The notes under the pieces are model-generated. The model was not told where the DNA came from and searched no databases. It saw nothing but the letters and a program-made list of their open reading frames with translations. Positions 10,005 to 29,639 of a stretch of 32,666 bases of DNA are shown here, piece after piece (positions within the stretch are counted from its first letter, which is position 1; every line of letters begins with the position of its first letter). Source of the stretch: an uncultured Oscillospiraceae bacterium (GTDB lineage Bacteria > Bacillota > Clostridia > Oscillospirales > Oscillospiraceae); contig CALXDL010000014.1 in NCBI GenBank assembly GCA_944387055.1, forward strand, positions 1 to 32,666. The letters run 5' to 3'. The translations under genes and the position numbers were made by a program.

Positions 10005-11291
10005 ATGGGTCTTTTGTTGAGCGGCGGGGCTGTCTACCAGGATGGCGCTTTCCATAAGCTGGATGTGCTGGAAGAGCAGGGCCGTATTGTTTCCATTTCC
10101 CCCACGCTTCCCCGGGAAGGTGTTTCCGTCGTTGAATTGCATGATATGCTGTTGGTGCCAGGTTTCGTCGATGTCCATGTCCATCTTCGACAGCCTGGCT
10201 TTTCTTATAAGGAGACCATCGCCTCCGGGACTCGGGCGGCAGCTGCCGGCGGATATACGGCGGTATGTGCCATGCCAAACCTGGATCCGGTCCCGGACAC
10301 GCGGGAGCATCTGCGCACGCAGCTGGATCTCATCCGGCGGGACGCCAAAGTCCATGTATATCCGTACGGTGCTATCACCCAGGGCGAGCAGGGCGGTGCG
10401 CTGGCAGATCTGGAGGGGCTCGCTGCGGAAGTGGCCGGCTTCTCCGACGACGGCCGTGGCGTCCAGGACGAAGCGCGCATGCGTGCCGCCATGGTGCTGG
10501 CCAAGTCGCTGGACAAGCCCATTGTCGCCCACTGCGAGGACGAGTCCCTGCTGGCCAAGGGCTGGTGCGTCCATGACGGCGCTTACGCCCGCGCGCACGG
10601 CCTCACCGGCAATGCCTCTGAAAGCGAGTGGCGCCAAGTAGGACGGGACATCCGGCTCGTCCGGGAGACCGGGTGCCGCTATCACGTGTGCCACGTCTCC
10701 ACCAAGGAATCCGTGGCTCTGATCCGTGCTGCCAAGGCAGAGGGCCTGCCGGTCACCTGCGAGACCGGCCCCCATTATCTGATCTTGTGCGACGAAGAGC
10801 TCCAGGATGAGGGGCGCTTCCGCATGAATCCCCCCATCCGCTCGGCCGCCGACCGGGACGCCCTCTTGGAAGGCCTGCTGGACGGGACCATCGACTGCAT
10901 CGCCACAGACCACGCGCCCCACAGCGCGCAGGAGAAGTCTGGTGGTCTGGCCCACAGCCTCAACGGCATCGTCGGGCTGGAATGCGCGTTCCCGGTGCTC
11001 TACACCCAGCTGGTAGAGCCGGGCATCGTCCCCTTGGCCACGCTGGTGGAAGCCATGTCTGTGCGGCCCCGGCGCATCTTCGGTCTGCCCGGCGGATCCA
11101 TCACGGTGGGGGCTCCCGCAGACCTGACGGTCCTGGACTTGGATCGTCCCGGTATCATCGACAGCGCCCGCTTCCGTTCCCTCGGCCGCGCTACGCCGTT
11201 CGACGGCTGGGGCGTCAGCGCCGCTGTGGCGCTGACGGTGTGCGGCGGTGAGCTGGTCTATGCGGATCTCAGAGAGGAGGACACCCTGTGA
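10005..11291 (+). CDS. pyrC: Dihydroorotase (PyrC)
   Basis: PyrC reversibly cyclises N-carbamoyl-aspartate to dihydroorotate, step three of UMP synthesis. The 428-aa length and motifs fit the class I bacterial enzyme: DVHVHLRQPG with zinc ligands His58 and His60, then CAMPNLDP, and DHAPHS (302-307) near the C-terminus. AAGGAGCG precedes the ATG. It is the first gene of the operon and overlaps pyrK by 4 nt (GTGA). Confidence 0.96.
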   Translation: MGLLLSGGAVYQDGAFHKLDVLEEQGRIVSISPTLPREGVSVVELHDMLLVPGFVDVHVHLRQPGFSYKETIASGTRAAAAGGYTAVCAMPNLDPVPDTREHLRTQLDLIRRDAKVHVYPYGAITQGEQGGALADLEGLAAEVAGFSDDGRGVQDEARMRAAMVLAKSLDKPIVAHCEDESLLAKGWCVHDGAYARAHGLTGNASESEWRQVGRDIRLVRETGCRYHVCHVSTKESVALIRAAKAEGLPVTCETGPHYLILCDEELQDEGRFRMNPPIRSAADRDALLEGLLDGTIDCIATDHAPHSAQEKSGGLAHSLNGIVGLECAFPVLYTQLVEPGIVPLATLVEAMSVRPRRIFGLPGGSITVGAPADLTVLDLDRPGIIDSARFRSLGRATPFDGWGVSAAVALTVCGGELVYADLREEDTL

Positions 11292-12028
11292 AACGATCGC
11301 TCTTCACCATGGAGCACGCCCGGCAGCTGACCAGTGACACGTACGAGCTGGTCCTCTCTGGCGATACCTCTGCCATCACCGCGCCGGGACAATTCGTCAA
11401 CATCGAGTTGCCCGGCAGATTCCTGCGCCGCCCCATCTCTGTGTGTAACTGGACGGAAGAGGGCGCGCTGATGCTGCTGGTGAAAGTGGTGGGCGACGGC
11501 ACGCGGCAACTGGTGCGCTGTGTCCCCGGTACGGAGCTGGACGTGCTCAGCGGACTGGGCAACGGCTTCGACCTGACCCAGGCAGGCCAGCGGCCCATCC
11601 TGTTGGGCGGCGGCATCGGCATCGCGCCCCTCTACGGCCTGGCCCTGCGGATGCTGGATGCCGGCTGCACGCCCACTGTGGGGCTGGGGTTCCGCTCCCA
11701 GGCAGACGCTTTCTATCTCCAGGAATTCGCTGCCCTCGGCTGCCGCTTGCTGGTGGCGACAGAGGACGGGTCTCTTGGCACCCGCGGCTTCGTGACAGAC
11801 ATCGCCCGCAACGTGCCGGAGTGCGACTACGTCTTCTGCTGCGGACCCACTGCGATGCTCAAGGCCATCCATGCCCTTCCCCAGTTCATCAGCGGCCAGT
11901 TCAGCTTCGAGGCCCGCATGGGCTGCGGCTTCGGCGCCTGCGTGGGCTGTTCCGTCCCCACCGTCCACGGCACCAAACGGGTGTGCAAGGACGGTCCCAT
12001 CCTGTTCAAGGAGGAGATCGTATGGTAG
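11288..12028 (+). CDS. pyrK: Dihydroorotate dehydrogenase electron-transfer subunit (PyrK)
   Basis: PyrK carries FAD and a [2Fe-2S] cluster and passes electrons from PyrD to NAD+, making a PyrD2K2 heterotetramer. In the 246-aa sequence the FAD-binding part (RFLRRPISVCNW), the nucleotide-binding GGGIGIAPL loop and the C-terminal cluster cysteines 213, 218, 221 and 233 (CX4CX2CX11C) are all visible. The start is a GTG overlapping the pyrC stop, with GAGAGGAGG upstream. It overlaps pyrD by 7 nt, so the two subunits are translated in step. Confidence 0.96.
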   Translation: MKRSLFTMEHARQLTSDTYELVLSGDTSAITAPGQFVNIELPGRFLRRPISVCNWTEEGALMLLVKVVGDGTRQLVRCVPGTELDVLSGLGNGFDLTQAGQRPILLGGGIGIAPLYGLALRMLDAGCTPTVGLGFRSQADAFYLQEFAALGCRLLVATEDGSLGTRGFVTDIARNVPECDYVFCCGPTAMLKAIHALPQFISGQFSFEARMGCGFGACVGCSVPTVHGTKRVCKDGPILFKEEIVW

Positions 12029-12939
12029 ACCTCTCTGTCTCTCTGGCAGGCGTCTCCCTAAAGAACCCTGTGATCCCCGCTTCCGGCACCTTCGGCTACG
12101 GCCGGGAGTATGCGGAGCTCTATGATCTCAATATCCTGGGGAGCTTTTCCTGGAAGGGCACCACCGGTGAGCCGCGCCTCGGGAACCCCCAGCCCCGTAT
12201 CGCTGAGACGGAGGGGGGGATGCTCAATGCCGTGGGCCTCCAGAATCCGGGCATCGACGCCGTAGTGGCGGAGGAGGTCCCTCATATCGCCCAGCTCTTC
12301 CAAGGTCCTGTGATCGCCAACATCGGCGGTTTCTCCCTGGAAGAATACGCTGACAACTGCCGTAAGCTGGAGGGCTGCCCCCAGGTGGCCATCCTGGAGG
12401 TGAACATCTCCTGCCCCAATGTCCACGCGGGCGGACAGAATTTCGGCTCCGACCCCAAGAGTGCTGCGGCAGTGACGCGAGCCGTGAAGGCCGCTACCAA
12501 GAAGCCGGTCTTCATGAAGCTCTCCCCCAATGTGACGGATATCGCGGACATCGCCAGAGCCTGCGCCGACGCCGGGGCCGATGGCATCTGCCTCATCAAC
12601 ACTCTCCTGGGCATGCGCATCGACCTCAAGACTCGCCGGCCTCTCCTGGCCAACCGCACCGGCGGCCTCTCCGGCCCCGCCGTGTTCCCCGTGGCGGTGC
12701 GGATGGTGTGGGACGTATACGAAGCGGTGAGATTGCCTATCATCGGCTGCGGCGGCGTCAGCTCCGCCAGGGACGTATGCGAGATGATGCTCGCCGGTGC
12801 GTCCGCCGTGGAGATCGGTGCGGCCAACCTGCGAGACCCCTATGCCTGCAAGACCATCATCGAAGGACTGCCCGCTGTCTGTGCACAGCTGGGCGTTTCC
12901 AAAATCTCTGAATTGACTGGAGGCGCGCACCATGATTAA
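12022..12939 (+). CDS. pyrD: Dihydroorotate dehydrogenase B catalytic subunit (PyrD)
   Basis: This FMN enzyme oxidises dihydroorotate to orotate (305 aa, class 1B, NAD+-linked through PyrK). The active-site base is Cys131 in NISCPN; the substrate-binding KLSPNVTDI and the FMN-phosphate glycine-rich loop IIGCGGVSS are present. The start ATG 12022 follows AAGGAGGAG inside the end of pyrK. The frame is open upstream to 11821, but that part is only the shadow of pyrK. Confidence 0.96.
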
Positions 12940-13633
12940 AGACGTCATCGTCGCTCTGGATTTCCCCACACGGGAGGAGACCCTCTCCTTCCTCGATCAG
13001 TTCCCCGCTGGGAGCAAGCCCTTCGTGAAGATCGGTATGGAGCTGTTTTATGCCGAGGGGCCGCAGATCGTCCGGGACATCAAGGCCCGGGGCCACAAGA
13101 TCTTCCTAGACCTCAAGCTCCATGACATCCCCAACACAGTCAAGCGGGCCATGGCGGTCCTCAGCCGCCTGGACGTGGATATGGTGAACCTCCACGCCGC
13201 CGGCGCTGGGGAGATGATGCGCGCCGCGCTGGAGGGGCTGACCCGGTCGGATGGGACCCGCCCTCTGCTCATCGCCGTCACCCAGTTGACCTCCACTGAC
13301 GCCAAGGCCCTCAAAAACGAGCTGCTGATCGATGTTCCCATGGCGGAAACGGTCCTATCCTATGCCAAGAACGCCGCAGACTCCGGATTGGACGGCGTGG
13401 TGTGTTCCCCGCTGGAAGCGGCCCTGGTAAAGGAGCGGTGCGGCGCGGACTTCGTCACCGTCACCCCCGGCATCCGTTTCGCGGACTCTGCCGCCGGTGA
13501 CCAAAAGCGCATGATGACTCCCGAAAAGGCAGGCAAGTCCGGATGCGATCTCATCGTGGTGGGCCGTCCCATCACCCAGGCAGAGGACCCAGTGGCGGCC
13601 TACCAGCGGGCAGTGACGGATTTCCTGGGATGA
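12932..13633 (+). CDS. pyrF: Orotidine 5'-phosphate decarboxylase (PyrF)
   Basis: PyrF decarboxylates OMP to UMP, the last step of the pathway, with no cofactor. This 233-aa TIM-barrel protein shows the catalytic LDLKLHD motif (Asp60, Lys62, Asp65), the substrate segment ALDFP and the phosphate-binding TPGIR and VVGRPIT loops. It overlaps the pyrD end by 8 nt, with CTGGAGG as ribosome site. It is followed by a 58-aa membrane protein gene and not directly by pyrE. Confidence 0.96.
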
Positions 13634-13654
13634 CGACCGGGCGGAGGTATCCCG

Positions 13655-13831
13655 ATGAACGATCATAAGAGCCGCTGGACGGACCTCTGTCTCGCCGCGT
13701 TCCTTTTTGTCTTAGTCCTCGCTTTCGGCGTCTTTTTTACACTGCAGCTTCCCCTTGGAACTGTGGAGAGCGCCATCTTATATCTGTCCGCCACCGTAGC
13801 TGTGAGCGCTTTTCTCATCGTGCGGAAATAA
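13655..13831 (+). CDS. Small two-helix membrane protein in the pyr operon
   Basis: An unrecognised 58-codon gene: a charged start ([10 protein letters not shown]), one hydrophobic segment ([19 protein letters not shown], residues 12-30), a short polar turn, a second segment ([16 protein letters not shown], residues 41-56) and a final RK. GCGGAGG lies 7 nt before the ATG, 21 nt after pyrF and 50 nt before pyrE. Ribosome site, operon position and clean membrane topology argue that it is real. It may act as a small membrane regulator or anchor, but nothing in the sequence shows a function. Confidence 0.7.
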
Positions 13832-13881
13832 CGGCGAACACATCCCTTCCGATAAATCATGGATCACAGGAGGATCTTCAT

Positions 13882-14523
13882 ATGAACCTGGAACAGACCA
13901 TCGCCCATGACCTGCTCTCCATCGGAGCGGTCTTCCTTCGTCCTGACGAGCCCTTCACCTGGGCCAGCGGCATCAAGAGCCCCATCTACTGCGACAATCG
14001 CCTGACTCTCACCACTCCCGCCGTCCGTACCCATGTGGAGGAGGGTCTGGTGGACCTCATCTGCAAGCACTACCCCACTGTGGAGGTCCTGATGGGAACC
14101 TCCACTGCCGGCATCGCCCATGCCGCTATCGTGGGACATCTCATGGGTCTGCCCATGGGCTATGTCCGCTCTGGCAACAAAGACCACGGCCGCCAGAACC
14201 GCATCGAGGGCAAGCTGGAAGCCGGCCAGAAAGTCGTGGTAGTGGAGGACCTGATCTCTACGGCGGGAAGCTGTATCGAGGTGGTGGAAGCCCTGCGGGA
14301 GGCTGGCGCCGAAGTACTGGGCGTCGCGTCCATCTTTACCTATGGTCTCCAGAAGGGCTTGGACCGGCTGGCAGCTGCGCATGTCACCAACTTCAGCCTT
14401 TCCAACTTCGACGCAGTATGCCAAGTGGCTGCGGACGAGGGCAAGATCCGTCCGGAGGATATCGCCCGCCTCCAGAAGTTCCGTGCGGATCCCTCTGACG
14501 AGAGCTGGATCACGTCGAAATAA
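13882..14523 (+). CDS. pyrE: Orotate phosphoribosyltransferase (PyrE)
   Basis: PyrE joins orotate to PRPP to form OMP. The 213-aa protein has the type I PRPP-binding signature [12 protein letters not shown] (residues 119-130), [16 protein letters not shown] near the N-terminus and the flexible-loop RSGNKDHG segment with the catalytic lysine. CAGGAGG stands 8 nt before the start. It is part of the pyr transcript; a gap of 153 nt without genes or clear signals follows before pyrB. Confidence 0.95.
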
Positions 14524-14676
14524 ATTCCGCTCCGCTGCGCTTCCGACTACCGCCGAAAACTCCGCCCGCTCCATCCTTTTCTCCTTTCCCCTCCGCACGT
14601 CGTGCGCCGGGGACCCCGACACATAGATCCCGCTCCGGCGGCCATCCCTCCAATCCCCCTTTGAAAGGAGTCTACC

Positions 14677-15597
14677 ATGCCCAGAAATCTCATCGATATC
14701 ACAGATCTCTCCGTGGCGGAGATCGACGAACTGATCGCCACTGCGGAGGACATCATCGCCCATCCTGCCAAATATCAGGATGCCTGTGCCCACAAACAGC
14801 TCGCCACGCTCTTCTTCGAGCCCTCCACCCGTACTCGCCTCTCCTTCGAATCTGCTATGCTGGCTTTAGGCGGCAGCACCTTAGGCTTTTCCGAAGCCAG
14901 CTCCAGCTCCACAGCCAAGGGCGAGACCGTCGGTGATACGATCCACACCGTCAGCTGCTACGCCGACATCATCGCCATGCGCCACCCCAAGGAGGGCGCC
15001 CCTTTCGCTGCCGCGCAATACAGTGAGGTGCCCATCATCAATGCCGGTGATGGCGGACACAACCACCCCACGCAGACCCTCACGGACCTGCTTACGATCC
15101 ACCGGGAGAAGGGGCAGCTGGATGACTTCACGATCGGTTTCTGCGGCGATCTGAAGTTCGGCCGCACCGTCCACTCTCTGGTGACCGCCCTCAGCCGGCA
15201 GACCGGCATCCGGTTCGTGTTCATCTCCCCCGAAGAACTGAAGATGCCTGACCATATCAAGGAGAACGTGCTTGCGAAGCGGGGCCTGGCCTATGAAGAG
15301 ACTGCCAGCCTGGAGGACGCCATGCCTGCACTGGACGTGCTGTATATGACCCGCGTCCAAAAAGAGCGCTTTTTCAACGAAGCCGATTATATCCGCTTGA
15401 AGGATACTTATGTGCTGGATCCGGAGAAGCTGGTGCCTGCCAAGAGCGATCTGTGTATCCTCCATCCCCTGCCTCGCGTGAATGAGATCACAGTCGCCGT
15501 AGACAAAGACCCCCGGGCCTGCTACTGGAAGCAAGTGAAGAACGGCAAATTTATCCGCATGGCCCTCATCATGAAGCTGCTGGATATCCGTGTTTGA
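14677..15597 (+). CDS. pyrB: Aspartate carbamoyltransferase catalytic chain (PyrB)
   Basis: PyrB condenses carbamoyl phosphate with aspartate, the committed step of the pathway. The 306-aa chain has the carbamoyl-phosphate motif STRTR (50-54), the lysine of the mobile loop (STAKGET, Lys81), [10 protein letters not shown] and the aspartate-binding HPLPR. AAAGGAG precedes the ATG. It is followed 14 nt later by pyrI, so the enzyme is the E. coli-type allosteric dodecamer, not the stand-alone trimer of Bacillus. Confidence 0.96.
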
Positions 15598-19621: not shown

Positions 19622-19972
19622 TCATTTGGCGCAGTTGCAGCCCTCGTCACCGGTGACGCATCCATCGCCCGCACAGGCGATGGTAGGGTCGCTGCTGGTG
19701 AACTCCACGCTGTAGCGCACAGGGATGGACAAGCAGACCTGCTGCGTCATCACCAGAGTGCAGAACGCGCCGGAGGCATCTGTCGTACAAGTGACAGTCG
19801 GTGTGCCCTGGCAGGTCGCTACCACTGTCCCGATCGTCGCCACAGGCCGCAGCGTCGCATACGCGCTGACGTCCGTGCATTGGAGGACGGTCTTGTCACA
19901 GCCGCGAGTACATGCTTCGTTTGGTGGATAGGGTGCGATCGGCTCATGCTCATAGGCCTCGTTGATACGCAA
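19622..19972 (-). CDS. Cysteine-rich protein of unknown function
   Basis: With the TTG start at 19972 (GAGGGA 6 nt upstream), this is 116 aa with 11 cysteines. A proline/acid-rich head (YEHEPIAPYPPNEA) precedes CTRGCDKTVLQC, then a beta-rich, threonine-rich middle (VATIGTVVATCQGTPTVTCTT), then QQVCLSIPVRYSVEF and a CAGDGCVTGDEGCNC tail. There is no signal peptide. Cys-rich beta proteins with an 'xCVxIPV' strand occur in spore-former genomes and a spore-surface role is possible, but I do not recognise the family. The upstream frame (to 20263) has shadow-like composition and is not included. Confidence 0.6.
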   Translation of the reverse strand: MRINEAYEHEPIAPYPPNEACTRGCDKTVLQCTDVSAYATLRPVATIGTVVATCQGTPTVTCTTDASGAFCTLVMTQQVCLSIPVRYSVEFTSSDPTIACAGDGCVTGDEGCNCAK

Positions 19973-20243
19973 AGTCGTTCCCTCGTTTCCTGGAGATTGC
20001 ACCCCGGGCGCTCCGCGCCTTATCGGGATGCGTTCCATCCTATGCGGCCGCCGGGCGCTGTGCGCCTGGTCCATCTGCATTTCATCCAGATGTCCGCCGG
20101 CAGGTACTGCCTGCGCCGCAGGGTCGCTGATACAGCCAGTCGCTCCGCCCGTCCTCTTTCTGTGCTCTCTGACGCGGCGGGCCGAGGCGCTGGCCAAGAG
20201 CGTGCCGTGCACCCTGCTGCCCGATATTCTCTGCGCAGGACTC
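19973..20243. other. Divergent intergenic stretch, no gene seen
   Basis: This is GC-rich sequence between the cysteine-rich gene and the MATE gene promoter. Frames are open on both strands, but none has a ribosome site or a plausible protein. A minus-strand promoter for the cysteine-rich gene must lie here; I see no clear SigA boxes, which would fit a sporulation sigma factor. Confidence 0.4.
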
Positions 20244-20271
20244 TTGCTTTTTCCACCGTCCATGTTAAGAT
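20244..20271 (+). promoter_or_regulatory. Possible promoter of the first MATE gene
   Basis: TTGCTT (20244-20249), a 16-nt spacer and TAAGAT (20266-20271). Boxes are moderate; the position 46 nt before the start codon is suitable. Confidence 0.45.
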
Positions 20272-20317
20272 ATGTTTAGGATCTTATCGGTTTCCGGTAA
20301 AGATGGGAGGAATGGAT

Positions 20318-21670
20318 ATGGAAGACCAGCAGGAGCAGAAGTATCAGCAGATGACACAGACCCCTGTCCCCCGCCTCATCGTACATCTGGCGCTGCCCTG
20401 CATCATCAGTATGCTGGTGACTGCGTTCTACAACATGGCGGATACCTTTTTCGTCGGTATGATGGACAGCGACAGCGCCACTGGCGCCGTGGGCGTGGTG
20501 TTCTCCGTCATGGCGGTCATCCAGGCCGTAGGCTTCTTCTTCGGTCACGGCAGCGGGAATTACATCTCCCGTGAATTGGGCAAGCACCATTTCGAAGAAG
20601 CTTCCACCATGGCTTCCACCGGCTTTTTCTACGCCCTGCTGACGGGCCTGGTCATCTGTGTGCTGGGCCTGATCTTTTTGACGCCGATGGCCACCTTGCT
20701 GGGCTCCACGCCTACTATCTTGCCCTACGCCAAAGATTATCTGCGGGTCATCCTTCTGGGCGCACCGTGGATGACGGCCTCTCTCGTGCTGAACAACCAG
20801 CTGCGTTTCCAGGGCAGTGCTGTTTACGGCATGCTGGGCATCACCAGCGGCGCAGTGCTCAACATCGGTCTGGATCCCCTGCTGATCTTCGTCTTCGACA
20901 TGGGCGTGGCCGGGGCCGCCTGGGCCACCATCATCAGCCAGTTCGTCAGCTTCTGCCTGCTGCTCGTCGGCTGTACCCGGGGCGGGAACCTCCGCCTCCA
21001 CATCTCCAAAGTGCGGTTCAAATGGGTCTATTTCAAGACGATCATCCAGGGCGGTCTCCCTTCCCTGGCCCGGCAGGGGCTGGCCTCCATCGCCACGATC
21101 TGCCTCAATCGCGCCGCAGGTCCCTATGGAGATGCGGCCATCGCAGCCATGAGCGTCGTGCAGCGGATCATGACGTTCGGCGCCTCCGCCATGATCGGCT
21201 TCGGACAGGGGTTCCAGCCGGTGTGCGGCTTCAACTTTGGCGCCCAGCTGTACGATCGGGTGAAAGAGGGGTTCTGGTTCTGCGTCAAGACCTCCACGGT
21301 CTTCCTCTTCGTGGTGGGCGCTCTGGGCTTCCTATTCGCTCCGGAGATCGTCGCCGTGTTCCGGGACAGTCCGGATGTCATCGCTTTCGGCGCCACCGCT
21401 CTGCGGTTCCAGTGCGTCACCTTCTGTTTCCAGGGCTGGATCACTATGTGCAACATGATGCTCCAGACCATCGGCCGCACAGTGCCTGCCACCTTCCTCG
21501 CCATGGCCAGACAGGGCATCTTCTTCATCCCGCTGGTCTTCATCCTCTCTGCGGCGTTGGGCTTCTTGGGCGTGCAGATGTGTCAGTCCGTCTCCGACCT
21601 GATCACGCTGCTGTGCGCCGTCCCCCTCCAGTGCCGCATCATGCGGGAGATGTCCCCGGCAAAGATCTGA
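20318..21670 (+). CDS. MATE-family multidrug/metabolite exporter
   Basis: This 450-aa membrane protein has about twelve hydrophobic segments in two MatE halves. The typical start PRLIVHLALPCIISMLVTAFYN-MADTFFVG is present (shown split), as is QGFQPVCGFNFGAQ in the second half, the MATE signature region. MATE proteins export cationic compounds against Na+ or H+ entry; the substrate cannot be read from sequence. ATG 20318 has GGGAGGA 6 nt upstream; an in-frame ATG at 20312 is an alternative. The long open frame before it is not coding. Confidence 0.92.
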   Translation: MEDQQEQKYQQMTQTPVPRLIVHLALPCIISMLVTAFYNMADTFFVGMMDSDSATGAVGVVFSVMAVIQAVGFFFGHGSGNYISRELGKHHFEEASTMASTGFFYALLTGLVICVLGLIFLTPMATLLGSTPTILPYAKDYLRVILLGAPWMTASLVLNNQLRFQGSAVYGMLGITSGAVLNIGLDPLLIFVFDMGVAGAAWATIISQFVSFCLLLVGCTRGGNLRLHISKVRFKWVYFKTIIQGGLPSLARQGLASIATICLNRAAGPYGDAAIAAMSVVQRIMTFGASAMIGFGQGFQPVCGFNFGAQLYDRVKEGFWFCVKTSTVFLFVVGALGFLFAPEIVAVFRDSPDVIAFGATALRFQCVTFCFQGWITMCNMMLQTIGRTVPATFLAMARQGIFFIPLVFILSAALGFLGVQMCQSVSDLITLLCAVPLQCRIMREMSPAKI

Positions 21671-23826: not shown

Positions 23827-24933
23827 TCATACCAGCGTCAGGTCTCCGTCCTTCACCCATCCCGCTTTCCGGCAGAAATAGTTGATGAGCGGACAGAGCA
23901 CTGCTGGCAGGATGAAGGAGATCATCAGCAGGCCCAGCCAATCGAACGCTGTGGGCACGATGGCAGAAGCACCGTTGGCAAGGGCCGTCTCGCTCGGTGA
24001 GAGCCATCCAGTCCACACGCCCAGCTGCCCACACAGTCCACAGGTCCCCATACCGGAATTGATGGCCGCACCATTCATCTCCAATTGGAATAGACAGGTG
24101 GCAATCGGCCCCGTGATGGCGGAGGTCACCGTGGGTGCGATCCAAATGCGCGGGTTCTTCACGATGTTCGGCATCTGGAGCATCGAGGTCCCCAGCCCTT
24201 GGCTCACCAATCCGCCCCAGCGGTTCTCCGGGAAGCTCATCACAGCGAAGCCCACCATCTGGGCGCAGCAGCCAGCCACGGCCGCTCCGCCAGCCAGTCC
24301 CGTCAGTCCCAGGACCGAACAGATGGCCGCCGAGGAGATAGGCAGCGTCAGCGCCACACCCACCAGTACCGACACCAAGATGCCCATCCAGAATGGCTGG
24401 AGCGCCGTGGCCTGCATGATGAGCTGGCCGAAAGCGCTGGCCACGGCACCGATGGGCGGCGCGATGATCCACGCCGCGCCCACACCGATCAAGATGGTCA
24501 CGATGGGCGTCACCAGGATGTCCACCTTCGTCTCCTTGCTGACGGCCTTGCCGCACTCAGCAGCGATGATGGCCACGAACAACACCGCCAACGGTCCGCC
24601 TGCCTGGCCCAGCACGTTGCAGGCGTATCCCACTGTAGCCAGTGAGAAGAGCACCAGCGGGGGTGCCTGGAGCGCGTATCCGATCGCGACGGCCATAGCG
24701 GCGCCGCTCATGAAAGACGCCAGCCCTCCCACCGTATATCCGACTCCGTTGATGGAGACGATCTCCTCTGTCAGGATGGCGATGTGGAACTGTGTACCGA
24801 TGGTGTTGAGGATGGTCCCGATCAGCAGCGAACAGAACAGCCCCTGGGCCATGGCGCCCAGGGCGTCGATCCCATACCGTTTGGCAGAGAAGATGATGTC
24901 TTTGCGCGCCAGGAATGCGTTTACCTTTTTCAT
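23827..24933 (-). CDS. Orphan PTS-EIIC-like membrane protein (PTS_EIIC_2/PfoR type), candidate niacin transporter
   Basis: This 368-aa integral membrane protein is glycine/alanine-rich, with about ten hydrophobic segments, and ends in LINYFCRKAGW. It fits the PTS_EIIC_2 (PfoR-like) family: YGIDALGAMAQGLF near the start, AAPPIGAVASAFG, GGAAVAGCCAQMVGFAVMSF and NSGMGTCGLCGQ. There is no EIIA or EIIB domain, and no such gene is nearby, so sugar phosphotransfer is doubtful. The start at 24933 is preceded by a weak AGGGA. A strong promoter carries a NiaR-type operator over its -10 box, pointing to control by nicotinate; transport of niacin or a related precursor is my inference. Confidence 0.75.
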   Translation of the reverse strand: MKKVNAFLARKDIIFSAKRYGIDALGAMAQGLFCSLLIGTILNTIGTQFHIAILTEEIVSINGVGYTVGGLASFMSGAAMAVAIGYALQAPPLVLFSLATVGYACNVLGQAGGPLAVLFVAIIAAECGKAVSKETKVDILVTPIVTILIGVGAAWIIAPPIGAVASAFGQLIMQATALQPFWMGILVSVLVGVALTLPISSAAICSVLGLTGLAGGAAVAGCCAQMVGFAVMSFPENRWGGLVSQGLGTSMLQMPNIVKNPRIWIAPTVTSAITGPIATCLFQLEMNGAAINSGMGTCGLCGQLGVWTGWLSPSETALANGASAIVPTAFDWLGLLMISFILPAVLCPLINYFCRKAGWVKDGDLTLV

Positions 24934-24957
24934 TGGGATCCCTGCTTCCATATGATG

Positions 24958-25001
24958 AAGATGTGGTTTACAGGTGTCAAGACACCTGTAAACCACATCT
25001 T
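24958..25001 (-). promoter_or_regulatory. NiaR-type operator, perfect 21-bp inverted repeat
   Basis: The arm of 24958-24978 is exactly complementary to 24981-25001 with two bases between them. The core reads TACAGGTGTC-TT-GACACCTGTA on the minus strand, which fits the Firmicute NiaR operator pattern as I remember it (TACAGGTGT-N4-ACACCTGTA). The repeat overlaps the -10 box and transcription start of the EIIC-like gene, a classic repressor position. niaR itself lies 1.5 kb upstream. Confidence 0.75.
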
Positions 25002-25025
25002 ACCCGCCGGATCGCCATTTGTCAA
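24997..25025 (-). promoter_or_regulatory. SigA promoter of the EIIC-like gene
   Basis: On the minus strand, TTGACA (25025-25020), 17 nt and TAAGAT (25002-24997). The -10 box forms the edge of the operator palindrome, so repressor binding would block RNA polymerase. Confidence 0.85.
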
Positions 25026-25105: not shown

Positions 25106-26302
25106 TCAGCCCTTGTGCTCCTCCAGCCAGTCCATCGTGTACTGGAGATACAGGAGCAATCCGTTGAAGATGCCCTCCTCATCCATCTTGAACTTGCTGT
25201 TATGATGCGCCCACGCCGCGTCGATATCCGGATTGCCGACGCCCACCAGTGCCATACAGCCTTTCTCCGGTGCCGCATCGATGTAGGCAGACACGTCCTC
25301 CGCCACGGTCAGTGGATCGAAGGGATACACCGCATCCGCACTCAGGATCTTCTCCACGGCCTTGGCCGCCCGCTCGGAGCACACGGGATCGTTGATGACC
25401 GGGGCCACGATATCGCGATAGATCAGCTCTGCCGTCGCGTCAAAGGTCTCCGCCGTCGTTTCTGCGATATGGCGGATCTGCTCTTCGAATTTGCTGCGCA
25501 CGTCTGCCTGATAGGTCCGCGTGGTACCCTCCAGGACCGCATCTTCCGCGATGATGTTGCGCTGTGTACCGGCTTTCATGCAGCCGATGGTGATCACGGA
25601 ATTGCGCATGGGGCTGGTTTTGCGGCTCACGATCGTCTGCAGGTTCATCACGATCGCAGAGGCCGCCACCACAGCATCGATCCCCTCGTGAGGCATCGCT
25701 CCGTGGCTGGCCTTCCCCTTGACATGTATCTCGAAGAATCCGCAGGAGGACAAACGCGGACCCGGGTCCACAGAGATCTTGCCCACCGGGATCCCAGACC
25801 ACAGATGCTCACTGAAGACGCCATCCACGCCTTCCATGACGTTCGCATCCATCATCCACTTCGCGCCCAGGCCGTTCTCCTCCGAGGGCTGGAACAGGCA
25901 CTTGACGGTGCCGCACAGCTCTTCCCGGATCGACATCATAGCCTTGATAGATGCCAGCAGCATCGCCATGTGACCGTCGTGGCCGCAGGCATGCATCACA
26001 CCTTCATTCTCGGACTTGAAGTCCACCGAGGCCTCTTCCGTCACCTTCAGGGCGTCCATATCAGCGCGCAGCAAGATCGTCTTGCCGGGCTTCCCGCCCC
26101 GGATCGTCGCCAAGATGCCTGTCGTGTCCCCTACCTGGACATATTCCACACCCATCGCGTCCAGTTCCCGGCGGATCCGCTTGCTCGTCTCGTACTCTTC
26201 ACCGCTCAGTTCAGGGAAACGATGCAGCTCATGCCGCATATCCAGCATGTATCCCCGGACTTGCTCTGCCAATGTTCTGATGTCTGTTGTCATGACGCTC
26301 AT
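25106..26302 (-). CDS. M20D-family amidohydrolase
   Basis: This 398-aa cytoplasmic metallo-amidohydrolase of the M20D group (HipO/IAA-amino-acid-hydrolase-like) cleaves N-acyl amino acids or related amides. Visible motifs are LRADMDAL, the metal site ACGHDGHMAML (Cys106, His108), the catalytic-base segment FQPSEEN (Glu141, Glu142), SEHLW (His166) and the dimerisation-domain KGKASHGAMPHEGIDA. The substrate is unknown. The start at 26302 has AAAGGAGG. It is co-directional with niaR and the EIIC-like gene but has a separate leader; no NiaR operator is seen before it. Confidence 0.9.
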   Translation of the reverse strand: MSVMTTDIRTLAEQVRGYMLDMRHELHRFPELSGEEYETSKRIRRELDAMGVEYVQVGDTTGILATIRGGKPGKTILLRADMDALKVTEEASVDFKSENEGVMHACGHDGHMAMLLASIKAMMSIREELCGTVKCLFQPSEENGLGAKWMMDANVMEGVDGVFSEHLWSGIPVGKISVDPGPRLSSCGFFEIHVKGKASHGAMPHEGIDAVVAASAIVMNLQTIVSRKTSPMRNSVITIGCMKAGTQRNIIAEDAVLEGTTRTYQADVRSKFEEQIRHIAETTAETFDATAELIYRDIVAPVINDPVCSERAAKAVEKILSADAVYPFDPLTVAEDVSAYIDAAPEKGCMALVGVGNPDIDAAWAHHNSKFKMDEEGIFNGLLLYLQYTMDWLEEHKG

Positions 26303-26518: not shown

Positions 26519-27031
26519 TCAGCCTTCCAACAGGATGCCCATCGCCCGCAGGCTCTCCCGGACCCGTCGGAGCGCTCCCTCGTCCGGACAGGAGATGGTG
26601 TGGAGATGGATGCCCTCTGTCAAATCGGACAATGGCAGCGCCTCGGACTGGCGGCAGCGGACGAGGAACTGCTCCACCTCATAACGGTCAGATATCTGGA
26701 GCGGGCCAGTGAGCTGTCCATAGACAGGGTGTTCCACGATGACGTCCAAGACCGTGCAGCCTTGATCGACGATGGCATCCAGCTCTCTTTCGATCCAACT
26801 CCCATCATGGCGGACCGCGATCCGCCGCACCAACCCACCGGCTTCCCGCAAGATCACATAGCCCCGTGGCGTAGCGGAGATGTCTGTCCCCGCCGCCCGC
26901 AGCAGAGCTACGTCCCCAACGATGATCTGACGGCTGACGGAGAATTGCCGCGCCAAAGCCGCAGCGCTGACGGGGCGCTCGGCCTTTTGCAATATCTCTC
27001 GGATAGCCTCCCGGCGCTCTTCTGCGTGCAT
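26519..27031 (-). CDS. niaR: Nicotinate-responsive transcriptional repressor NiaR
   Basis: This 170-aa regulator has an N-terminal winged helix (AAALARQFSVSRQIIVGDVALL, shown in part as residues 24-44) and a C-terminal 3H domain (HPVYGQLTGPLQISDRYEVE, then LTEGIHLHT). Metal ligands His75, Glu83, His142 and His144 match the nickel ligands of Thermotoga NiaR with a constant offset of four. NiaR represses NAD synthesis and niacin uptake genes when niacin is plentiful. The start is 27031, with AAGGAGG 10 nt upstream; an in-frame ATG at 27061 has no such site. Its likely local target is the EIIC-like gene. Confidence 0.93.
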   Translation of the reverse strand: MHAEERREAIREILQKAERPVSAAALARQFSVSRQIIVGDVALLRAAGTDISATPRGYVILREAGGLVRRIAVRHDGSWIERELDAIVDQGCTVLDVIVEHPVYGQLTGPLQISDRYEVEQFLVRCRQSEALPLSDLTEGIHLHTISCPDEGALRRVRESLRAMGILLEG

Positions 27032-27123
27032 CCCTCGTTCCTCCTTCGTGGCCTCATCCACAGTCGATCACAGTCCCTCCCGCCGCTGTGGAGGGGAAGC
27101 GGCACTTCTCCGGCCATGCGTCT

Positions 27124-27913: not shown

Positions 27914-28153
27914 ATGAAACGGATCAAAGCAGCCTGCATCTGCCAGACGCTGCACTTCATGCTGAAAGATGACGTGGCGCATGACGAAGCCGTAGCGCTG
28001 GTCGCAGAGGAAGTGGCCCGCTACAAACAAGGCTTGGAAAAACACCATGTCCAACACAAGATCGTAGAAGAACGTCCTCAGGCAGATGGCTCGATCGTCC
28101 TCAAGATCGTCAAGCAATATAACCAGAGTCCTGTGGGCGACTATCTGCAGTGA
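27914..28153 (+). CDS. Conserved-looking small protein of unknown function
   Basis: This 79-aa soluble, mixed-charge protein begins MKRIKAACICQTLHFML, continues with an amphipathic helix (AVALVAEEVARYKQGLEKH) and ends with a strand-turn pattern (QHKIVEERPQADGSIVLKIVKQYN). There are no membrane segments. A very strong ribosome site (GGAGGAGG) and a consensus-like promoter imply good expression. A terminator separates it from the MATE gene, so the two may be linked by readthrough. I do not know a function. Confidence 0.8.
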   Translation: MKRIKAACICQTLHFMLKDDVAHDEAVALVAEEVARYKQGLEKHHVQHKIVEERPQADGSIVLKIVKQYNQSPVGDYLQ

Positions 28154-28181
28154 AAACGGAATAGAGACTCGATATCTAAAG

Positions 28182-28227
28182 CGTGTAGCCAATGGCGTAG
28201 ATCCAGCTTTGGCTGCACGTCTTTTTT
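28182..28227 (+). terminator. Terminator between the 79-aa gene and the second MATE gene
   Basis: CGTGTAGCCAA (28182-28192) pairs with TTGGCTGCACG (28209-28219), one wobble, followed by TCTTTTTT. No promoter is obvious between it and the MATE start at 28248, which suggests partial readthrough or attenuation. Confidence 0.8.
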
Positions 28228-28247
28228 GTTTGGAGGCAAGAATATCC

Positions 28248-29639
28248 ATGGAAGCAAGATCCAATACCTTCTTAGAGACAGAACCCGTCGGCAAGCTGAT
28301 GTGCCGGTACGCGATCCCCTGTGTGATCTCTCTGCTGGTGGCCGCACTGTATAACATCGTCGACCAGATCTTTATCGCCAACGCCAGTTATCTTGGTTCT
28401 TATGGAAATGCGGCGAATACAGTGGTGTTCCCTCTGACTGTGGTGGCGCTCGCGATCGCCGTTTTGATTGGCGATGGATGCTGCGCATTCGTCAGCATCT
28501 GTTTGGGCAGAGACGAGAAAGAGCGGGCACATCGGAGCATCGGGAACGCCATCGTCCTCTGTCTCGCTGCCAGCATCCTCCTCACGGCCATCTATCTTAT
28601 TTTCCAAGAGCCGATCCTCACCATGTTCGGCGGCCGGGTGAATGCTGAGACGTTCCGCTATTCCAAAGAGTACTTTTTCTATATCTCCCTTGGTATCCCC
28701 TTCTATATGTTCGGCCAAGCGATGAATCCGATCATCCGTTCGGATGGGAGTCCTAAGTTCGCCATGTTCTCCACATTGCTGGGGGCGGTCCTCAACATCA
28801 TCCTTGACCCGATCTTCATCTTCCTCTTCCGCTGGGGCATGATGGGAGCGGCTGTCGCCACTGTGATCGGGCAGATCTCCACGGCCCTCCTCTCTGTTTG
28901 GTATCTTTGTCACATGAAGGCCGTCAGTCTCCAAACGGACAGCTTCCGCCTAAAGGGCGGTCTCATCAAACGATTCCTGATCCTTGGGCTGTGCAGTCTG
29001 CTCTCGCAGGTCTCCTTGGTCGTTTCCATGGCAGTGGTCAACAATATGATCCGCAAATACGGCGCTCTCGATCCTATTTTTGGCCAGGACCAATATGCCC
29101 AGATCCCCATGGCCGTCGTGGGGATCGTCATGAAGTTCTTCCAGATCGTGATCTCCATCTCCATCGGCCTCGCGGCCGGTTGTATCCCCATCGTGGGCTA
29201 CAACATCGGCGCAGGACACAAGGACCGAGCCCGGCGTCTGTTCACACACTTGCTCCTATCTGAGGCAGTCATCGGAGCCATCGCCTTTTTCATCGTCGAA
29301 TGTTTCCCGCAGCAGCTCATCTCCATTTTTGGAGCCGCCAACGAAAGCGTCTACTATACCGATTTTGCGGTCAGATCCTTCCGCATCTATCTGTGTATGC
29401 TTATCCTTGCCTGTATCAATAAAGGTACGTTCATCTATCTGCAGTCGCTGGGGAAAGCCCTGGCGTCCACACTGCTGTCGATGGTGCGGGAAGTCGTGTT
29501 CGGTGTGGGGTCCGCCCTGATCTTGCCGTTGTCCTTCGGCCTGGATGGCGTCTTATACTCCATGCCTGTATCAGACCTTTTGACGTTCGTGATCTCTTCT
29601 ATCTTGATCTTCTGTACCTATCGGGAACTGCGCACATGA
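28248..29639 (+). CDS. MATE-family exporter, second copy
   Basis: This 463-aa membrane protein has twelve predicted segments in two MatE halves. The start is typical (GKLMCRYAIPCVISLLVAAL, then YNIVDQIFIANASYLG) and the second half holds AAGCIPIVGYNIGAGHKDRARR. It is not a close copy of the MATE protein at 20318: the insertion QIFIANASYLGSYGNAANTV marks a different subfamily. The substrate is unknown. ATG 28248 has GGAGG 11 nt upstream, slightly far. It sits directly downstream of a terminator. Confidence 0.92.
   Translation: MEARSNTFLETEPVGKLMCRYAIPCVISLLVAALYNIVDQIFIANASYLGSYGNAANTVVFPLTVVALAIAVLIGDGCCAFVSICLGRDEKERAHRSIGNAIVLCLAASILLTAIYLIFQEPILTMFGGRVNAETFRYSKEYFFYISLGIPFYMFGQAMNPIIRSDGSPKFAMFSTLLGAVLNIILDPIFIFLFRWGMMGAAVATVIGQISTALLSVWYLCHMKAVSLQTDSFRLKGGLIKRFLILGLCSLLSQVSLVVSMAVVNNMIRKYGALDPIFGQDQYAQIPMAVVGIVMKFFQIVISISIGLAAGCIPIVGYNIGAGHKDRARRLFTHLLLSEAVIGAIAFFIVECFPQQLISIFGAANESVYYTDFAVRSFRIYLCMLILACINKGTFIYLQSLGKALASTLLSMVREVVFGVGSALILPLSFGLDGVLYSMPVSDLLTFVISSILIFCTYRELRT

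What the first reader, a model, noticed from the sequence alone, without database searches (positions are those of the whole stretch)
23827..25025. EIIC-like orphan transporter under a NiaR-type operator: candidate vitamin B3 importer
Seen: a perfect 21-bp inverted repeat (24958-25001, core TACAGGTGTC-TT-GACACCTGTA) lies on the -10 box of a strong promoter 24 nt before a PTS_EIIC_2-type gene that has no EIIA/EIIB partner. A complete NiaR gene with all four metal ligands sits 1.5 kb upstream on the same strand. Known: NiaR represses NAD synthesis and niacin uptake genes in Firmicutes, and published regulon reconstructions include uncharacterised membrane proteins. I do not know whether this family is among them. 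Inference: this protein imports nicotinate, nicotinamide or a related precursor, which would move a 'PTS' family to a non-sugar role.
Basis: partly seen in the sequence, partly recalled or inferred. Interest (0 to 1): 0.85.

Follow-up and report, generated by a model that had tools for sequence, protein, structure and literature searches.

The report
NiaR-controlled niacin importer with EIIC fold
A gut bacterium that seems unable to make vitamin B3 from scratch carries a sugar-transporter-like membrane protein whose switch is the vitamin B3 sensor NiaR, so it is most likely a vitamin B3 importer, probably of a type already predicted but not shown to transport.

Summary
In detail: a perfect 21-bp inverted repeat lies on the -10 box, 24 nt before a PTS_EIIC_2 (PF13303) gene, with an intact niaR 1.5 kb upstream. 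The tie to NiaR is not accidental. Among relatives the operator is present in all 29 genomes with niaR and in 1 of 9 without (Fisher 1.8e-7). NadA was found in 0 of 37 genomes of the genus, PncB in 33; pncB has a NiaR-like site in 3-4 of 20 examined. Bacilli orthologs (42-48% identical) carry NiaR-like boxes in 6 of 13; 59 distant paralogs only at chance. So this is most likely a NiaR-repressed niacin importer with an EIIC-like fold and no phosphotransfer partner in the window, probably the NiaY family predicted in 2008; that identity could not be checked, and transport is untested. New here: arms outside the NiaR core covary (79% paired against 20-30% when slid) but not at pncB, nadB or Bacilli sites, which suggests that the operator doubles as a terminator-like hairpin.

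The parts
23827..24933 (-). PTS_EIIC_2 (PF13303) membrane protein, 368 aa, candidate niacin importer (NiaY-type)
   Evidence: Pfam 1.7e-87; AlphaFold model pLDDT 81.7 whose top four PDB matches are structures or models of PTS EIIC proteins, weakly scored
24958..25001 (.). perfect inverted repeat, 21-nt arms, 2-nt centre; NiaR operator plus covarying outer arms
   Evidence: covariation across relatives
24970..24989 (.). NiaR operator core ACAGGTGTCTTGACACCTGT
   Evidence: matches published type I motif (PMC7713382, PMC5343564)
24997..25002 (-). -10 box TAAGAT of the transporter promoter, overlapping the repeat
   Evidence: TATAAT-like hexamer common at this place in relatives
25020..25025 (-). 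-35 box TTGACA
   Evidence: exact TTGACA near this place in 71 of 80 operators scored
26519..27031 (-). niaR, niacin-responsive repressor (HTH_11 + 3H); listed ORF begins at GTG 27061, likelier start ATG 27031
25106..26302 (-). M20 amidohydrolase (TIGR01891) between niaR and the transporter; probably an insertion of this lineage, not part of the switch
   Evidence: outside the window's own copies only one distant match (29%, L233, not between the two genes) among the loci then held

Best explanation
The gene encodes a niacin importer (nicotinate more likely than nicotinamide) with the fold of a PTS EIIC permease but without phosphotransfer. When niacin is plentiful, zinc- and niacin-bound NiaR dimers sit on ACAGGTGTC-TT-GACACCTGT, cover the region just behind the -10 box and block a near-consensus promoter; when niacin falls, NiaR leaves and the importer is made. 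Imported nicotinate is trapped by PncB and feeds NAD, which this genus seems unable to make from aspartate. Shown by sequence: the operator, its tie to niaR, its presence on niaX, nadB and (in some relatives) pncB, no NadA found, PncB present, an EIIC-like fold in the model. Inferred: NiaR binding, direction of transport, substrate, lack of phosphotransfer, trapping. The protein is most likely the NiaY family named by Rodionov et al. 2008.
For: Next gene: EIIC in 88 (87 by match, L189 by reading its cut-off start), niaX in 24, nadB in 2, unassigned in 5 (L158, L193 at a contig end, L207, L215, L224). All 24 niaX loci have niaR within 73 nt of the operator centre. In the genus 24 genomes have a site with at most 2 mismatches and all 24 sites lie just upstream of the EIIC gene. 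niaR against site (TGTCNNGACA core, at least 13 of 18) in own-order genomes with an in-clade EIIC: 29 of 29 with niaR have the site, 1 of 9 without (G002, 56% complete); Fisher 1.8e-7, G038 dropped for short upstream sequence. NadA 0 of 37, PncB (TIGR01513) 33 of 37 genomes of the genus. pncB upstream regions: a site of 13-14 of 18 beside a -10 box in 3 of 20 examined, a weaker one (12) in a fourth. Bacilli orthologs, 42-48% identical over their length: strict core in 4 of 13 genomes, two more with one departure judged by eye, all 6 with niaR; distant paralogs 1 of 59, 0.40 expected. All 81 site-bearing rows fall in one clade of 98 (support 92), none of 74 rows outside (44 of the 81 were found through the operator). 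EIIC fold. No conserved His in 88 clade rows.
Against: No binding, expression or transport data. Five of the 13 Bacilli genomes have niaR but no recognisable site before the ortholog. Nine in-clade members of the own order have neither operator nor niaR, so the protein does not require NiaR. G030 (95% complete) has niaR but no EIIC gene found. Foldseek E-values are weak (0.018 at best; none under 0.001). Whether the family is the published NiaY could not be checked: the 2008 paper is not held. Regulation by NiaR does not by itself fix substrate or direction. Absence of NadA and niaR rests partly on incomplete MAGs. pncB sites of 13-14 of 18 are only a little above the 9-12 of the other regions.
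Confidence: 0.8

Rival explanations
1. It is an ordinary sugar PTS permease whose EIIA/EIIB lie elsewhere in the genome, and the NiaR operator is incidental or adjusts it to redox state.
For: Pfam name and an EIIC-like fold; paralogs in Bacilli are numerous. EIIA, EIIB, EI and HPr were not searched in the rest of the genome.
Against: Operator tied to niaR and kept across distant lineages; same slot as niaX; no EIIA/EIIB among the 19 window proteins scanned; no conserved His in 88 clade rows, whereas sugar EIICs use one (recalled).
Confidence: 0.07
2. It carries another NAD precursor or related compound (nicotinamide, nicotinamide riboside, quinolinate) or exports one.
For: NiaR regulation fits any NAD precursor; PnuC is also under NiaR in S. 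pneumoniae (PMC5343564, passage).
Against: QRPTase_C (NadC) passes the cut-off in only 2 of 37 genomes of the genus, at 8.6e-19 and 1.5e-5, so quinolinate would be of little use; PncB present; repression of an exporter by niacin makes little sense. PncA, PnuC and NadR were not searched.
Confidence: 0.2
3. The outer arms of the palindrome are a by-product of mutation (template switching that perfects quasi-palindromes), not a functional hairpin.
For: Known mutational process (recalled); arms also seen in 4 of 6 loci whose upstream gene looks divergent (uncertain orientation calls); arms persist (6.7 of 9) where no niaR was seen upstream.
Against: Arms depend on position: four pncB sites 1-2 of 9, one nadB site 4 of 9, six Bacilli sites and L008 1-4 of 9 paired, against group means of 6.6-7.6 of 9 at the EIIC operators; they are followed by a T-rich tract.
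Confidence: 0.35

Closest known systems
NiaY (predicted niacin transporter family, Rodionov et al. 2008; SEED label 'nicotinate-regulated transporter BH3254', recalled)
   Same: NiaR-regulated membrane protein of Bacilli and Clostridia; the NiaR-boxed ortholog group is uncommon in Bacilli (13 genomes met among the loci examined out of 299 sampled, a lower bound)
   Different: I could not compare sequences with the published NiaY; none of the passages I read says which protein family NiaY is
NiaX (ECF S component for niacin)
   Same: same operator, same place next to niaR in 24 loci
   Different: unrelated protein of roughly 180-205 aa; of 3 Pfam-scanned, 2 gave weak matches, below the cut-off, to the ECF riboflavin S component; named NiaX here from context; needs an ECF module (recalled)
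PTS EIIC permeases ChbC, PtsG, MalT
   Same: best structural matches
   Different: no EIIA/EIIB partner among window proteins scanned, no conserved His, different regulation
PfoR-like PF13303 paralogs of Bacilli (PfoR name recalled)
   Same: same Pfam family; shared glycines, prolines, Asn237 and Asn256
   Different: 25-35% identical over partial stretches; no NiaR sites beyond chance; differ at E126, K129, K133, D138, M251, Q253

Membership tests
PTS_EIIC_2 (PF13303) | Pfam profile over the gathering score | tested here: met
   294 bits against cut-off 28.9
NiaR | HTH_11 plus 3H domain with His-Glu-His-His metal/niacin site | tested here: met
   ligands from PMC7713382 (passages)
type I NiaR operator | palindrome with TGT-N4-ACA core, on targets of NAD metabolism, in genomes that have niaR | tested here: met
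   in vitro binding not tested
NiaY niacin transporter | NiaR regulation and occurrence in Bacilli and Clostridia | tested here: met
   by operator sequence only; published description from PMC5343564 (passage)
NiaY niacin transporter | sequence homology to the published NiaY (BH3254) | not testable with these tools
   2008 paper not held; B. halodurans not identified among the genomes sampled (best match to BhNiaR 56% among 20 loci)
NiaY niacin transporter | niacin uptake | not testable with these tools
   needs experiment
sugar PTS EIIC | EIIC fold | tested here: inconclusive
   top four PDB matches are structures or models of PTS EIICs, prob 0.63-1.00, but E 0.018-0.14
sugar PTS EIIC | EIIA/EIIB partner near by | tested here: not met
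   none in the 19 window proteins scanned; rest of genome not searched
sugar PTS EIIC | conserved catalytic His (recalled) | tested here: not met
   no column with His as commonest residue in 88 clade rows

The most novel reading that the evidence does not exclude
An EIIC-fold permease works without any phosphotransfer partner as a vitamin B3 importer, and its NiaR operator is at the same time the terminator hairpin of the preceding gene (typically niaR): the promoter's -10 box is the outer edge of the hairpin, so read-through RNA folds the whole stem and stops, while RNA started at the transporter's own promoter lacks the outer left arm and escapes. NiaR core and hairpin are separable: the pncB, nadB and Bacilli sites examined have the core without the arms, and G006, in which no niaR was found, keeps most of the arms but not the core.
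Probability: 0.4. Interest if true: 0.68.

Novelty: new member of a known kind. Interest (0 to 1): 0.52.

Why it matters
B3 transporters of the three known families were confidently found in only 25% of B3-auxotrophic genomes of a gut reference set (PMC6593275, passage). A transporter annotated as a sugar PTS component that is really a niacin importer would help fill that gap for Oscillibacter, Flavonifractor, Dysosmobacter and relatives, and would give the EIIC fold a non-sugar, non-PTS role. The covarying arms offer a testable case of one DNA element acting as operator, promoter edge and terminator.

Tried and rejected
Tried without result. NCBIfam gave no family for the transporter. PDB sequence search gave no meaningful match (best E 0.76, an antibody chain). 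Rfam and tRNA scans of the window: none. Viral fold library: no match with E under 1. Literature: none of the papers listed links PTS_EIIC_2 or PfoR to niacin in its listing (lists capped; one search was swamped by the enzyme PFOR, by the place name Niayes). One search found 4 papers for PF13303/COG3641/PTS_EIIC_2/'putative toxin regulator'; I saw passages of three, none on niacin. No held paper has 'BH3254' or 'nicotinate-regulated transporter'. PMC8925076 holds 'Niay' only as an author name. PMC6018154 (passages) calls NiaY and NiaP putative niacin transporters, no family given. B. halodurans was sought through its NiaR among 20 Bacilli niaR loci; best match 56%.

Considered and rejected: that the palindrome is chance; that the M20 gene belongs to the system; that NiaR has many strong targets in this genome (the two other sites have 3 mismatches, against one match of the control pattern); quinolinate as substrate.

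Limits of counts. The tree, the arm analysis and the operator set use the first 80 of the 119 scan loci plus relatives; the next-gene tally covers all 119. In one search the group labelled 'bacilli' (84 rows) contains three rows from Clostridia (L254 Clostridiales CCNA10, L258 Mogibacterium, L259 Blautia). A fourteenth in-clade Bacilli row (L327, G127, 40% identical, no site, niaR present) is not counted among the 13. In one search, 13 of 185 rows were dropped (short or identical) and 8 site calls were set by hand. The slide control used 79 of 81 operators (two with odd centres dropped). The -35 score covers 80 of 81. In one search the window itself counts as 'no niaR upstream' because only 1.4 kb of flank was held. 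The orientation of upstream genes is a GC3 guess. The covariation shuffles do not allow for relatedness; the sister-pair count does so only in part.

Full report
What is there. On the minus strand of the window run niaR (26519-27061 as listed, likelier start 27031), an M20 amidohydrolase (25106-26302) and a PTS_EIIC_2 membrane protein (23827-24933, 368 aa). Between the last two lies a perfect inverted repeat, arms 24958-24978 and 24981-25001, overlapping the -10 box (24997-25002) of a promoter with an exact TTGACA at 25020-25025. The repeat holds ACAGGTGTC-TT-GACACCTGT; TACAGGTGTCTTGACACCTGTA occurs once in the 2.12-Mb, 85%-complete genome. NiaR keeps the four metal/niacin ligands of BhNiaR (ligand numbers from passages of PMC7713382).

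Is it a NiaR operator? Published type I NiaR sites have TGT-N4-ACA (PMC7713382, passage), and in pneumococcus 5'-TACWRGTGTMTWKACASYTRWAW-3' was tested by promoter mutation (PMC5343564, abstract and passages). The next gene is this transporter in 88: 87 by sequence match and L189 by reading the first codons at the edge of the held DNA. In 24, from streptococci, other Lactobacillales and one Anaerofilum, the operator lies between niaR (within 73 nt) and a small membrane protein that from context is NiaX; of three scanned with Pfam two gave weak matches to the ECF riboflavin S component. Two (Blautia and a Lachnospiraceae MAG) precede nadB. Five are unassigned: L193 ends at the operator, L224 lies at the edge of its locus, and L158, L207 and L215 look unrelated. 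The same operator in the same place beside niaR thus serves two unrelated transporters.

Is the tie to niaR more than neighbourhood? In the window's genus (37 genomes) PF13303 was found in 32, the 3H domain of NiaR in 29, NadA in 0, TIGR01513-type PncB in 33. QRPTase_C passes the cut-off in only 2 of 37, at 8.6e-19 and 1.5e-5, far weaker than in the seven order members with clear NadC (2e-64 to 7e-59). Of own-order genomes whose EIIC falls in the clade, 29 of 29 with niaR have the site; of 9 without niaR only G002 (56% complete) has it (Fisher 1.8e-7; a site means a TGTCNNGACA core with at least 13 of 18 matches; G038 dropped because only 85 nt upstream were held). In the genus all 24 sites with at most two mismatches lie just upstream of EIIC, so NiaR there seems to govern little else strongly. 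But of 20 pncB upstream regions, those of G007, G028 and G029 carry a site of 13-14 of 18 beside a -10 box and G008 a weaker one, the other 16 scoring 9-12, which links the switch to nicotinate salvage.

How far does it reach? PF13303 was found in 96 of 299 sampled genomes of the class of Bacillus sp. ISL-34. Among the loci I examined, 13 Bacilli genomes carry orthologs 42-48% identical to the window protein. Four have the strict core upstream (G089, G113, G217, G306) and two a site with one departure, judged by eye (G097, G195), all 29-66 nt before the matched domain and all with niaR in the genome; five have niaR but no site; two have neither. In the distant paralogs the core occurs in 1 of 59 (0.40 expected). 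On a FastTree tree of 172 rows all 81 site-bearing rows fall within one clade of 98 (support 92) and none among the 74 outside. Eight of these site calls were set by hand and 44 of the 81 rows were found through the operator, so the independent weight rests on the relatives and the Bacilli rows.

What does the protein do? AlphaFold2 on 25 clade members gave mean pLDDT 81.7 and pTM 0.76. The first four PDB matches are ChbC, integrative models holding E. coli PTTBC and PtsG, and MalT, with probabilities 0.63-1.00 but E-values of 0.018-0.14: an EIIC-like fold, weakly scored. No column has His as its commonest residue, and the clade has its own conserved charged residues E126, K129, K133 and D138, which are not the common residues of the paralogs. 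That sugar EIICs depend on a conserved His is recalled. No EIIA or EIIB domain was seen among 19 window proteins. The simplest reading is facilitated or ion-coupled niacin entry followed by trapping through PncB. This is inference.

The palindrome is longer than the operator. In 81 distinct EIIC-linked operators (from relatives and the first 80 scan loci), positions 10-18 on either side of the centre, outside the pattern used to find them, vary freely yet stay complementary; position 11, for example, is paired in 72 of 81 with all four pair types (25.6 expected by shuffling). Over positions 10-18, 563 of 711 cells pair (79%) against 20-30% when the partner is slid by 1-4. In 35 non-overlapping sister pairs of proteins at least 75% identical there are 62 compensated double changes and 71 one-sided ones. 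Right of the stem follows a T-rich stretch: at least 5 T of 8 in 27 of 37 operators with niaR directly upstream, 11 of 30 with none seen, and 5% of background 8-mers. The -10 hexamer falls at positions 17-22, so a transcript from this promoter would begin near position 10 and lack the outer left arm; mean folding energy changes from -25.2 (read-through) to -11.8 kcal/mol. Operators elsewhere lack the arms: four pncB sites 1-2 of 9, one nadB site 4 of 9, six Bacilli sites and L008 1-4 of 9. Sixteen niaR-niaX operators have them too, most clearly at positions 11-13 and 15. G006, in which no niaR was found (85% complete), keeps 7 of 9 arm pairs around a ruined core (L344). I read this as a terminator hairpin of the preceding gene merged with operator and promoter. 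Against it: the window's own tract after the stem is weak (4 T of 8), arms persist where no niaR was seen upstream (6.7 of 9), and they are present in 4 of 6 loci whose upstream gene looks divergent, on uncertain orientation calls. A mutational origin is not excluded.

What is known. NiaR is reported to control niaX, niaY, niaP, pncA, pncB and nad genes (PMC7713382, passage); NiaY was found in five Bacilli and Clostridia genomes (PMC5343564, passage); NiaP, NiaX and NiaY are called the three known B3 transporter families (PMC6593275, passage); NiaY and NiaP are called putative niacin transporters (PMC6018154, passage). S. sobrinus is said to have NiaY (PMC12735969, section 3.1 read). The source paper (Rodionov et al. 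2008) is not held, and none of the passages that I saw says which protein family NiaY is. Distribution and regulation fit, so I put about 0.75 on this being NiaY. I therefore file it as a new member of a known kind, well supported, with an unproven transport function and a structural feature in its operator of which I saw no report; I looked only through the listing (3 papers, none opened) and the NiaR papers named above.

Noticed in passing
window 24958-25001 and the EIIC-linked operators of L009-L031, L128-L205, L331-L346: Arms outside the NiaR core covary (positions 10-18, 79% paired against 20-30% slid), followed by a T-rich tract: operator and terminator-like hairpin merged.
   Followed up: partly
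L344 (G006:C15): In a genome where no niaR was found the hairpin arms before the transporter persist (7 of 9 pairs) while the NiaR core is destroyed, a natural separation of the two functions.
   Followed up: partly
L373, L385, L386 (weaker L374): upstream of pncB in G007, G028, G029 (G008): NiaR-like sites beside the -10 box of pncB in a few relatives.
   Followed up: yes
L187 232-1931: Gene order operator-EIIC-niaR, so niaR itself would be under the operator (autoregulation) in this MAG.
   Followed up: no
window 25106-26302: M20 amidohydrolase (TIGR01891) between niaR and its target; no close copy at this place in the other loci then held.
   Followed up: partly
G014:C4:377036-377557: A divergent QRPTase_C protein (8.6e-19) in a genus that otherwise shows no clear NadC; may be a NadC relative of another role.
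   Followed up: no
L158 215-1245: PfkB-family sugar kinase gene of Bacillus sp. ISL-34 beginning right at a palindrome ACAAGTGTCTAGACACTTGT; probably unrelated to NiaR.
   Followed up: no
window 10005-15597: Pyrimidine-synthesis-like genes on the plus strand (dihydroorotase-like amidohydrolase, dihydroorotate dehydrogenase, OMP decarboxylase, aspartate/ornithine carbamoyltransferase), and two MATE transporters at 19880-21670 and 28086-29639.
   Followed up: no
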